32,579 nt of DNA, from contig SCTJ01000005.1 of assembly GCA_004297805.1 (NCBI GenBank), forward strand, positions 1-32,579. Reading direction: 5' to 3'. The translations under genes were made by a program, and so were the position numbers. Below, one piece after another: positions 13,094 through 20,026 of this stretch (position 1 is the stretch's first letter; each line of letters starts with the position of its first letter). The stretch is from Patescibacteria group bacterium. Its GTDB lineage: Bacteria > Patescibacteriota > Minisyncoccia > Moranbacterales > SCTJ01. The notes under the pieces are model-generated. The model made no database searches and was not told the origin of the DNA. It saw nothing but the letters and a program-made list of their open reading frames with translations.

Positions 13094-14938
13094 TTATTCA
13101 ACAGTCACGGACTTAGCCAGGTTGCGTGGCTTGTCTACATCGTATCCACGCCCTACCCCGACATAATACGCCAAGAGTTGCAACGGAATGACTGAAAGCA
13201 AGGGAGTAAGCATTTCCAGTGTTTTGGGAATATAGATCACATCATCAGCAATTTTTTGAATAGCCTTGTCGCCCTCGGTCGCAATGGCAATGATTTTTCC
13301 GCCACGCGCCTTAATTTCCTGCATGCCGCTCAAGTTTTTTTCATAGACGCTGTCTTTGGGTGTCACAAAAATGGACGGGAAGTTTTTGTCAATCAAGGCA
13401 ATGGGCCCATGCTTCATTTCGCCCGAGGGATAACCCTCGGCATGCACATAGGCAATCTCCTTGATTTTGAGCGACCCCTCCAACGCGATCGGATAATTAT
13501 ACTTGCGTCCCATGTAGAGAAAATTCTGATACTTCAAATACTTCTTAGCAATCTTTTTGATGTCCTTGGAAGTTTTGAGCATTTTCTCGATTTGCTTTGG
13601 GATCTTGGCCATTTCCGTTGCGATACGCTGGCCCATCACAAAAGACATGCCCCGCTGCCGGCCCAACATGAGCGTCAGCAACACAAAAACTGATAGCTGA
13701 GAGGTAAAGGCTTTGGTTGAAGCTACTCCAATTTCTGGCCCAGCATGATTATAGGTCCCGGCGTCCGTTTCGCGTGCAATGGTCGAGCCAACCGTATTCA
13801 CGATGCCCAGCGTCAGCGCACCCTTTTCTTTGGCCTCCCGAATGGCGGCCAGCGTGTCCGCTGTTTCGCCTGATTGCGAAATCGCCAGCACCGCCACCTT
13901 GTCATTCAGGATCGGTTTACGATAACGAAATTCGGAAGCATATTCAACTTCCACCGGGATGCCGGCATATTCTTCCAACATATATTCGCCCACTAACCCA
14001 GCGTAATAGGAAGTGCCACAACTCACGATGACAATTTTTTCGATACCCCTCAATTGATCAGCCACATGACGCAATCCCCCGAGCTTGGCCCTGCCCTCAG
14101 GAACCACCAAGCGACCGCGAGTGGCGTTCTGAATAGTTTCCGGTTGCTCAAAAATTTCTTTGAGCATGAAATGGTCAAAGCCATGCTTTTGCGCTTTTTC
14201 AATTGACCAATCCAATTTGGTCACTTCTTTGCTCACTGCCCGATTTTTCACGCTAAACACCTCGTAGTTGTCAGGTGTGATTACTGCCACCTCTCCATCT
14301 TCAAGATAAACCACTTGATCCGTGTGACGAATGATGGCCGAGACATCCGAAGCGATCACATTCTCATTACTGCCCACGCCAATCACCAGAGGACTGCCGA
14401 GACGCGCTACGATCATTTTATTTGGCTCATCACGGTGAATAATGGCCAGACCATAGGTTCCCCGCAGAAGCTTCAGCGATTCCAAGACTGATTTTTTGAA
14501 ATCGTATTTTTTCCCGAACTCCTCAATCAAGTGCGCAATGACCTCACTGTCTGTTTCCGATTTGAACACGTGTTTCTTGCGAATGAGAATATCCTTGAGT
14601 TCTTGATAATTCTCAATGATACCGTTATGCGCTAGCCAAATCTTTCCGTTGCAGTCTGAGTGCGGATGTGAATTCCGATCACAAGGCTTGCCATGTGTCG
14701 CCCAGCGCGTGTGCGCAATGCCCACCACGCCCTCCAGTTGCTCACTCACTTTGTTTTCCAAATTAGCCACTCGGCCCACTGACTTCACCGCTACGATACT
14801 GGATCCATTCTTGCCACCCACTTGAGACACAATTGCCAGGCCCGCCGAGTCATAGCCGCGATACTCCAGACGCTTGAGACCTTCAATCAAAATCGGCGCA
14901 GCGTTCTGCTTGCCAATGTAGCCAATGATTCCACACAT
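13094..14938 (-). CDS. glmS: Glutamine--fructose-6-phosphate aminotransferase (isomerizing)
   Basis: MCGIIGYIGKQNAAPILIEGLKRLEYRGYDSAG, HTRWATHGKPCDRNSHPHSDC, SIS-domain SCGTSYYAGLVGEYMLEEYAGIPVEVEYASEFRYR, C-term DKPRNLAKSVTVE. Confidence 0.98.
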   Translation of the reverse strand: MCGIIGYIGKQNAAPILIEGLKRLEYRGYDSAGLAIVSQVGGKNGSSIVAVKSVGRVANLENKVSEQLEGVVGIAHTRWATHGKPCDRNSHPHSDCNGKIWLAHNGIIENYQELKDILIRKKHVFKSETDSEVIAHLIEEFGKKYDFKKSVLESLKLLRGTYGLAIIHRDEPNKMIVARLGSPLVIGVGSNENVIASDVSAIIRHTDQVVYLEDGEVAVITPDNYEVFSVKNRAVSKEVTKLDWSIEKAQKHGFDHFMLKEIFEQPETIQNATRGRLVVPEGRAKLGGLRHVADQLRGIEKIVIVSCGTSYYAGLVGEYMLEEYAGIPVEVEYASEFRYRKPILNDKVAVLAISQSGETADTLAAIREAKEKGALTLGIVNTVGSTIARETDAGTYNHAGPEIGVASTKAFTSQLSVFVLLTLMLGRQRGMSFVMGQRIATEMAKIPKQIEKMLKTSKDIKKIAKKYLKYQNFLYMGRKYNYPIALEGSLKIKEIAYVHAEGYPSGEMKHGPIALIDKNFPSIFVTPKDSVYEKNLSGMQEIKARGGKIIAIATEGDKAIQKIADDVIYIPKTLEMLTPLLSVIPLQLLAYYVGVGRGYDVDKPRNLAKSVTVE

Positions 14939-18744: not shown

Positions 18745-19491
18745 CTAGAGTGAATTCCACAATTGTAAGAAAATAGTTTTTTGAGTTTCGTAGATCATTT
18801 GATTTTCAATAATCACGCCGACTGGCGATCGATTATTATCCAAGGAAATAAAGGCGCACTTGCCAGCATAGATAATGATATAGGTCATGTTTTCTTTGGA
18901 GCCATCCTTGGGAACAATCCATTTGCGTTCATCTAGCCCATAGGTCCCTCCGCCCTGTGACAGGGAAATAGCCATGGCTTTGACTCCGAGCTTAACGCGT
19001 TTTTTGTTGAAATCAGGATAAGCGGCATAGACATCCTCGCGCACTCCGGCAGCCGAATAGACATAATATTCTTTGGCCTTCTCTTCACTCGTCAATGACA
19101 ACACGTCATCCAAAATGAAACGAATTCCGTCTCGCCCTTCATAGAATTTGGTGACTGGCTTGCTGCCCTCTTTGTCTTGCAAGGATTTCAGTTCCGGAAT
19201 CAGTTCCTTCAATTTTTCCCCGGCATCTTCCAACTTGGCTTTTTCATTCTCTACCATCTTGAGAATTTTCTCCGGATCCTCGGCCACGAAACGCTGCTTG
19301 GTATCCTGATGGTAAAAGGACACAATTCCCAATTCTTGCAGTTTTTTCAAAATATCATAGGTCGTGCCACGATTAAGTTCCGTCAGCTCCGCTAGACTGC
19401 GCACTGAAACAGCTCCATATTCCAGGAGCTTGAGATAAACTTTGATTTCCTTGTCCGATAGACCTATTTTTTTGAAAACGGTGATGTCCAC
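18745..19491 (-). CDS. TrmB-family transcriptional regulator
   Basis: KIGLSDKEIKVYLKLLEYGAVSVRSLAELTELNRGTTYDILKKLQELGIVSFY; wHTH plus TrmB-like C-terminal region. Confidence 0.88.
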   Translation of the reverse strand: MDITVFKKIGLSDKEIKVYLKLLEYGAVSVRSLAELTELNRGTTYDILKKLQELGIVSFYHQDTKQRFVAEDPEKILKMVENEKAKLEDAGEKLKELIPELKSLQDKEGSKPVTKFYEGRDGIRFILDDVLSLTSEEKAKEYYVYSAAGVREDVYAAYPDFNKKRVKLGVKAMAISLSQGGGTYGLDERKWIVPKDGSKENMTYIIIYAGKCAFISLDNNRSPVGVIIENQMIYETQKTIFLQLWNSL

Positions 19492-19882
19492 ATTGTTTGT
19501 TTTAAACGATTTAACTCCTCGGCTAGAGGAGCTGTGGGTTGGGCTATAAAAAGTTGTTTGTGAGTGGGGGGAGAGGAGAGAGAAAAGATGGAATAGCGGG
19601 AAGGGAAGGCGCAGGGGTCTCTATATAGTTATATATAGAATGGGGGGTGAAGATGTAAGGCAGTGTATGAACATTTAGTGAGCCTGGGAGAATCTTGATA
19701 ACAAGATTTCCCAGACAAACACTACACTTACAGAGCTTCAAGATACAGTTGTATCATTCGCAGAATGCGAGTTAGCCGAAAGGCTAGATGGAACCCATAA
19801 TGTGATTATTTGGCTCACCAGACTCTGGCTAACAGGCATTCCGTGCGCCTATCTTTTCTCTCTCGTTGTAAATATACTTCTT
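19492..19882 (-). ncRNA. Candidate structured RNA / long 5' leader of the TrmB-NTase-yvcK operon (unknown class)
   Basis: No plausible ORF; multiple hairpins: CTGGGAgAATCTTG-ataa-CAAGATTtCCCAG (19684-19714), GATAC-agtt-GTATC (19742-19755), TCGCA-gaa-TGCGA (19758-19770), TAGCC-gaaa-GGCTA (19773-19786), a long-range GGUGAGCC (19819-19812)/GGCUCACU (19684-19677) pairing, TCTATATA-gtta-TATATAGA and CTCCTC..GAGGAG near the TrmB start; strong upstream promoter. Confidence 0.55.
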
Positions 19883-19888
19883 GTCTCC

Positions 19889-19916
19889 AGTATACACATT
19901 CTACAAAACTTGTCAA
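19889..19916 (-). promoter_or_regulatory. Sigma70-type promoter upstream of structured leader
   Basis: Minus strand TTGACA (19916-19911), 16-nt spacer, TATACT (19894-19889). Confidence 0.75.
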
Positions 19917-19970
19917 GTATTTTCCGACAACTTATGCTTAATTATATAATAATGCCTTATTAAAAGCACA

Positions 19971-19996
19971 AAAAGTGACATATTCTGTCACCTTTT
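19971..19996 (-). terminator. Terminator downstream of the 395-aa hypothetical
   Basis: GTGACA-gaata-TGTCAC followed by TTTTT on the minus strand. Confidence 0.8.
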
Positions 19997-20026
19997 ATAA
20001 CTATATACGATCCAGAAGGCCTAACG

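What the first reader, a model, noticed from the sequence alone, without database searches (positions are those of the whole stretch)
19492..19916. Unassigned hairpin-rich ~390-nt leader or small RNA with its own strong promoter
A TTGACA-16-TATACT promoter on the minus strand precedes ~390 nt without a plausible ORF. The region shows a multibranch-like layout: a GGUGAGCC/GGCUCACU closing stem enclosing TAGCC-UUUC-GGCUA, UCGCA-UUC-UGCGA, GAUAC-AACU-GUAUC and a 13-bp bulged hairpin CUGGGAAAUCUUG-UUAU-CAAGAUUCUCCCAG, then a pyrimidine-rich tail, a perfect UCUAUAUA/UAUAUAGA hairpin, and CUCCUC/GAGGAG just before the TrmB start. I do not recognise a known riboswitch or RNase P, 6S, tmRNA or SRP signature. 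Candidate new structured RNA (riboswitch, regulatory leader or independent sRNA).
Basis: partly seen in the sequence, partly recalled or inferred. Interest (0 to 1): 0.75.

Follow-up and report, generated by a model that had tools for sequence, protein, structure and literature searches.

The report
Strongly folded leader of trmB gene
In an uncultured ultra-small (CPR) bacterium, the stretch between a conserved promoter and a sugar-regulator gene (trmB) would make a very strongly folded, non-coding RNA leader that matches no known RNA family; relatives have leaders at the same spot with quite different sequences, and most of them begin with a motif resembling the ribosomal-RNA antitermination signal boxA.

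Summary
A TTGACA-16-TATACT promoter on the minus strand precedes about 390 nt without a credible ORF. This stretch has the strongest fold (z about -10) of 214 gene-upstream segments from CPR genomes. It has no Rfam match and no sequence homologue.

The proposed closing stem GGUGAGCC/GGCUCACU has pairing probability 0. The favoured fold is one ~290-nt domain closed by a perfect 14-bp stem (19864-19851 / 19589-19576) plus 7 bp.

The best explanation is a cis-acting 5' leader of trmB, not a conserved riboswitch. The promoter/operator is conserved across trmB orthologs, whereas the leader is hypervariable: 0-41 nt in half of 26 orthologs, 70-394 nt in the rest. One related leader pair (L040/L079) keeps a ~55-bp hairpin through 15 two-sided pair changes.

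Eight of 11 long non-coding leaders carry a boxA-like motif just after the -10 box, against 10% of control promoters. The window's own copy is weak.

NusB is present and Rho was not found in all ten genomes tested, so a Rho/rut mechanism is unlikely. I propose that the leader folds, possibly while tethered by the Nus complex, and tunes trmB expression after initiation. That mechanism is inferred, not shown.

The parts
19911..19929 (-). Inverted repeat TGTCGGAAAATACTTGACA overlapping the -35 box; the window's version of the ortholog element TGTAGAAAAATAnTTGACA; inferred TrmB autoregulatory operator
   Evidence: Aligned in trmB orthologs; operator role inferred
19889..19916 (-). Promoter TTGACA-16-TATACT
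   Evidence: 11/12 consensus; the string ACTTGACAAGTTTT-n-TATAYTGGA occurs in 3 of 131 genomes of the order, upstream of trmB each time
19865..19878 (-). Weak boxA-like element AGTATATTTACAAC, 10 nt after the -10 box
   Evidence: PWM built from rRNA leaders of the same order; window score 5.7, shuffle p=0.068 alone; set-level enrichment 8/11 vs 10% of control promoters
19851..19864 (-). 5' arm of the closing stem, GAGAGAGAAAAGAU
   Evidence: 14 bp perfect, pairing probability 0.96-1.0
19576..19589 (-). 3' arm of the closing stem, AUCUUUUCUCUCUC
19844..19850 (-). 5' arm of the second closing helix, AGGCGCA
   Evidence: Mean pairing probability 0.96
19607..19613 (-). 3' arm of the second closing helix, UGCGCCU
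19761..19843 (-). Sub-domain 1: long bulged hairpin (CGGAAUGC/GCAUUCUG, GUUAGCC/GGCUAAC, inner helices)
   Evidence: Mean pairing probability 0.88-1.00
19742..19755 (-). Small hairpin GAUAC-AACU-GUAUC
19648..19740 (-). Sub-domain 2: long hairpin including GUCUGGGA-AAUCUUG-UUAU-CAAGAUU-UCCCAGGC
   Evidence: Mean pairing probability 0.94-0.99
19620..19639 (-). Perfect hairpin UCUAUAUA/UAUAUAGA
   Evidence: Mean pairing probability 0.97
19513..19533 (-). Hairpin AGCUCCUC/GAGGAGUU just before the start codon
   Evidence: hairpins this close to a start codon are common in control genes
18745..19491 (-). trmB: TrmB-family regulator, 248 aa, GTG start
   Evidence: Pfam PF01978, E=1.9e-13; orthologs up to 71% identical

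Best explanation
It is the 5' leader (untranslated region) of the trmB mRNA. It starts about 7 nt after the -10 box of a conserved, probably TrmB-autoregulated promoter and runs about 390 nt to the GTG start. The leader folds into one compact ~290-nt domain closed by a 14+7-bp long-range stem. It acts in cis, after initiation, on how much trmB is made (and, in most relatives, glmS immediately downstream). The most likely route is co-transcriptional: the 5' end, where most long trmB leaders have a boxA-like NusB/S10 motif, is held near RNA polymerase while the downstream arm is made, so that the long-range helix forms. Shown: promoter conservation, extreme predicted fold, lack of sequence conservation, pair-preserving change in one related leader pair, boxA-like enrichment in the set, NusB present, Rho not found. 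Inferred: that the leader is transcribed, that the fold forms in cells, that TrmB binds the promoter, that Nus factors act on it, and any effect on expression.
For: The promoter/operator is conserved upstream of nearly all close orthologs, whatever the leader length. The window leader is the most structured and the L040 trmB leader the second most structured of 214 gene-upstream segments. The L040/L079 leaders are homologous and keep a ~55-bp hairpin, with 15 of 49 aligned pairs changed on both sides and 14 of 19 5'-arm substitutions still paired in both. A boxA-like motif lies 7-15 nt after the -10 box in 8 of 11 long non-coding leaders, against 10% of 157 control promoters; the summed score exceeds all 1000 shuffles. 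rRNA leaders of the same order carry a clear boxA. NusB is above its curated cut-off in 10 of 10 genomes. Nus complexes are published to regulate a non-rRNA gene (suhB) through a 5'-UTR boxA (PMC5725501), and tethering of boxA has been proposed to promote the rRNA leader-trailer helix (PMC10250234).
Against: The window's own boxA-like element is weak (4 mismatches to GYTCTTTAANA; shuffle p=0.068). No homologue of the window leader exists for a covariation test. Close orthologs have short or no leaders (L036 0 nt, L038 8 nt), so the leader is not needed for trmB function in general. The sense and antisense MFEs are equal (-129.2 and -129.8), so the fold itself does not prove an RNA. The two-sided changes in L040/L079 could also come from quasi-palindrome correction. 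Related leaders share ancestry, so the boxA-like statistics are inflated.
Confidence: 0.5

Rival explanations
1. Neutral, fast-evolving spacer: repeat expansion and inverted duplication lengthened the gap between promoter and trmB in some lineages, and the fold is a by-product without function.
For: Simple-repeat expansions lie in related leaders ((TTCTC)n in L067, CCTTCTC and TTAATTC repeats in L047); no sequence conservation; leader absent in close relatives; about 5 gains or losses on the tree; sense and antisense MFE equal.
Against: The window and L040 leaders rank first and second of 214 upstream segments; L040/L079 keep the hairpin through 15 two-sided pair changes; the boxA-like motif sits at a near-fixed offset.
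Confidence: 0.22
2. Discrete small RNA made from this promoter and ending before trmB, acting elsewhere; trmB is read only by leak-through or from another promoter.
For: In several relatives a hairpin with a U-rich tail lies just before trmB (L035, L041, L050, L067); the window's fold is a closed, self-contained domain.
Against: No terminator-like site was found in the window leader on the minus strand; hairpins near start codons are equally common in control genes (61% at or below -5 kcal/mol); the promoter is the same one that in short-leader orthologs drives trmB directly; the sequence is not conserved as expected for a trans-acting RNA.
Confidence: 0.14
3. Riboswitch or ribozyme sensing an amino-sugar metabolite (trmB neighbours glmS in most orthologs).
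For: glmS follows trmB in most orthologs; glmS leaders in Firmicutes carry the glmS ribozyme (general knowledge); the leader is strongly structured.
Against: No Rfam hit in the window leader or in any long-leader relative's leader; no shared aptamer-like core between leaders; many orthologs lack any leader.
Confidence: 0.07
4. Rho-dependent attenuator: the C-rich, G-poor part of the leader is a rut site.
For: Pyrimidine-rich, G-poor leaders in L047, L049, L050 and L067 (L047 and L049 are among the most pyrimidine-rich of 214 segments).
Against: Rho was not found in any of 10 genomes: the TIGR00767 hits are far below cut-off and look like ATP-synthase subunits, while 8 of 14 control genomes pass the cut-off.
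Confidence: 0.02

Closest known systems
boxA-dependent suhB leader of Enterobacteriaceae (Baniulyte et al. 2017, PMC5725501)
   Same: boxA in a non-rRNA 5' UTR that controls the downstream gene through the Nus complex; an RNA loop between boxA and polymerase is proposed
   Different: suhB regulation ends in Rho-dependent termination, whereas Rho was not found here; the window's boxA match is weak; the leader is far longer and more folded; SuhB was not looked for
Pre-16S rRNA leader-trailer helix with boxA (Warner et al. 2023, PMC10250234)
   Same: A boxA-like element directly 5' of one arm of a long-range helix (21 bp here in two stacked parts; more than 17 bp needed in E. coli) that closes a large folded domain
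   Different: No rRNA inside; the domain is only ~290 nt; the helix is followed by a protein-coding gene
glmS ribozyme/riboswitch (Rfam RF00234)
   Same: Structured leader linked to amino-sugar synthesis genes
   Different: No Rfam match; no conserved core; glmS is not the first gene after this leader
Intrinsic-terminator attenuators and T-box-type leaders
   Same: Promoter, long folded leader, then gene
   Different: No terminator-like site inside the window leader; no Rfam match

Membership tests
boxA / Nus-factor leader | boxA sequence near the 5' end of the transcript | tested here: inconclusive
   Set-level enrichment (8/11 vs 10%; 0 of 1000 shuffles), but the window's own site is weak (p=0.068)
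boxA / Nus-factor leader | NusB encoded in the genome | tested here: met
   TIGR01951 above cut-off in 10/10 genomes including the window's own
boxA / Nus-factor leader | NusB-S10 binds the leader and expression depends on it | not testable with these tools
   Needs binding and reporter assays
Rho-dependent leader (rut) | Rho present | tested here: not met
   No TIGR00767 hit above cut-off in 10 genomes
Riboswitch (known class) | Match to a curated family | tested here: not met
   window; relatives
Riboswitch (new class) | Conserved aptamer core across leaders of orthologous genes | tested here: not met
   Leaders share only short 3' hairpin or 5' segments within small clades; many orthologs have no leader
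glmS ribozyme | RF00234 match | tested here: not met
Intrinsic-terminator attenuator | Terminator hairpin with U tract between promoter and gene | tested here: not met
   None in the window leader on the minus strand (only a -1.9 kcal/mol candidate); present in L035, L041, L050 and L067, but near-start hairpins are not enriched over controls
RNase P, 6S, tmRNA, SRP RNA | Match to the family model | tested here: not met
   Rfam scans; ARAGORN found only a tRNA in the window
Structured mRNA leader of trmB | Same promoter drives leader and gene; leader structure under selection | tested here: inconclusive
   Promoter conservation met; pair-preserving change only for the L040/L079 relatives, not testable for the window for lack of homologues

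The most novel reading that the evidence does not exclude
A pre-rRNA-like leader on an mRNA: in Rho-less CPR bacteria a boxA-like element recruits the Nus complex to a long non-coding leader, tethers its 5' end and drives formation of a long leader-trailer-type helix that sets expression of a trmB(-glmS) operon. The sequence of the folded part would be almost free to change as long as the long-range pairing is kept.
Probability: 0.15. Interest if true: 0.75.

Novelty: new variant of a known kind. Interest (0 to 1): 0.45.

Why it matters
In the papers I searched I found no account of leader-RNA regulation in CPR bacteria. A leader that keeps promoter, position and foldedness but not sequence would escape homology-based RNA discovery, which relies on conserved cores. 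If the boxA-like element works, it would show Nus-factor control of a protein-coding gene in organisms without Rho, separating the RNA-folding role of the Nus complex from its Rho-related role. It would also point to a regulated trmB-glmS unit for amino-sugar synthesis in Falkowbacteria-like CPR.

Tried and rejected
Rfam at gathering threshold and at E<5 gave no family for the window leader, nor for the leaders of 11 relatives. DNA homology of the leader in 96 order-level and 384 class-level genomes gave only itself plus short chance-level hits of 19-29 nt. A search of viral contigs for TrmB relatives found none. The Rho/rut idea, suggested by the pyrimidine-rich leaders, was rejected because Rho was not found. 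The idea that a terminator-like hairpin before the start codon defines these leaders was dropped: hairpins within 50 nt of the start are equally common in control genes (61% at or below -5 kcal/mol). Strand assignment from folding was dropped because sense and antisense MFEs are equal; strand rests on the promoter. In L039 and L054 the long 'leader' holds a shared small ORF (MPKNNKVRAITC... in L039), so these were treated as coding and left out of the non-coding set. A mobile or repeat origin was not supported: the leader is single-copy in its own genome.

Full report
WHAT IS THERE. The window is contig C38 of a 1.4-Mb, 250-contig genome. The trmB orthologs with names come from Falkowbacteria, Parcubacteria and other Patescibacteria. 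The promoter TTGACA-16-TATACT lies on the minus strand at 19916-19889. Downstream, 19882-19492 has no ORF of 80 aa or more; the longest ATG reading I noticed is 33 codons (19839-19738). The gene that follows (18745-19491) is a TrmB-family regulator (PF01978, E=1.9e-13). The next gene is a GlmU-like sugar-1-phosphate nucleotidylyltransferase.

THE FOLD. The 390-nt RNA has an MFE of -129 kcal/mol, z -10.8. Among 214 segments upstream of genes in related CPR sequences it ranks first, and the trmB leader of relative L040 ranks second. These segments come from loci chosen for trmB or rRNA, so they are not a random sample of genomes. The closing element is a perfect 14-bp stem, 19864-19851 with 19589-19576, stacked on AGGCGCA/UGCGCCU; inside are two long hairpin sub-domains and two small hairpins, nearly all with pairing probability above 0.9. 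The antisense strand folds to the same MFE, so the fold alone does not name the strand.

RELATIVES. 32 close trmB orthologs were found in GTDB genomes (L079, a further partial copy, was recognised later) and four within the window's order. Nearly all share a promoter with an inverted-repeat element TGTAGAAAAATAnTTGACA over the -35 box, and a second conserved AT-rich element about 40 nt upstream of the TTGACA. The first is probably the TrmB operator, which is inferred. The distance from promoter to gene falls into two groups: 0-41 nt in 13 of the 26 orthologs placed on the tree, 70-394 nt in the other 13. The tree needs about five gains or losses of the long state. In most orthologs with an identifiable downstream gene this is glmS. 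The leader sequences themselves are not conserved, apart from short blocks within small clades (L049/L050/L067 at the 3' end, L040/L079 at the 5' end). The window leader has no homologue in 384 class-level genomes.

IS THE STRUCTURE UNDER SELECTION? For the window this cannot be tested. For the L040/L079 pair it can, weakly, with two sequences: both fold into a ~55-bp hairpin at the homologous place (L079 z -10.05). Of 49 aligned pairs 30 are unchanged, 4 changed on one side and 15 on both, and 14 of 19 5'-arm substitutions remain paired in both. Quasi-palindrome correction is the non-selective alternative.

THE boxA-LIKE ELEMENT. rRNA leaders of the same order carry a boxA of the form G[AC]AC[TC]TT[GA]A[AC]AA, mostly 125-310 nt upstream of 16S. 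A matrix from these finds a similar motif 7-15 nt after the -10 box in 8 of 11 long non-coding trmB leaders (score 4.5 or more), against 10% of 157 control promoters; the summed score exceeds all 1000 shuffles (that sum also included the two coding leaders). Against the published gamma-proteobacterial consensus GYTCTTTAANA (PMC5725501), L047, L049 and L050 have one mismatch, L041 two and the window four. The window's site is therefore weak on its own (p=0.068). Shared ancestry inflates these figures. NusB is present in all ten genomes tested and Rho was found in none, which argues against a rut-type explanation and leaves the RNA-folding role of the Nus complex. In E. coli, tethering of boxA has been proposed to help the leader-trailer helix form (PMC10250234). 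In the window the boxA-like element (19878-19865) directly abuts the 5' arm of the long-range stem (19864).

VERDICT. A real, extreme, unassigned structured leader, best read as a cis-acting 5' UTR of trmB. A known riboswitch, a known ncRNA and a Rho attenuator are not supported. The Nus-tether mechanism is a lead supported by the set of relatives and not by the window alone. A neutral spacer remains a serious rival.

Noticed in passing
G000:C160:7758-9574 (L125): A second SSU rRNA hit in the window's genome whose start reads TACCTGGTTGATCCT, as in eukaryotic 18S rRNA; likely contamination of the assembly.
   Followed up: no
window 19967-19999: Palindrome AAAAGGTGACAGAATATGTCACTTTTTG between the upstream gene and the trmB promoter; terminator-like on both strands, or a second operator.
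   Followed up: no
L037, L041, L042, L047, L054 upstream of trmB: trmB lies within about 2 kb downstream of 23S-5S rRNA genes in several relatives with long leaders (5S read directly in L054).
   Followed up: partly
L035, L036, L037, L038, L041, L045, L046 and others, downstream of trmB: glmS (MCGIVGYIG...) directly follows trmB in most orthologs, suggesting TrmB control of amino-sugar synthesis. The window has glmS at 13094-14938 (SIS plus glutamine amidotransferase domains).
   Followed up: partly
L039 and L054, between promoter and trmB: A shared small ORF of about 55 aa (MPKNNKVRAITCAICTKFCQ... in L039) of unknown function sits between the trmB promoter and trmB.
   Followed up: no
L067 and L047 leaders: Tandem repeats in the leader: (TTCTC)n in L067, CCTTCTC-type and (TTAATTC)n repeats in L047.
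   Followed up: no
Ten genomes (G000, G131-G135, G137-G140): No Rho above the family cut-off; only hits that look like ATP-synthase subunits, while NusB is always present.
   Followed up: partly
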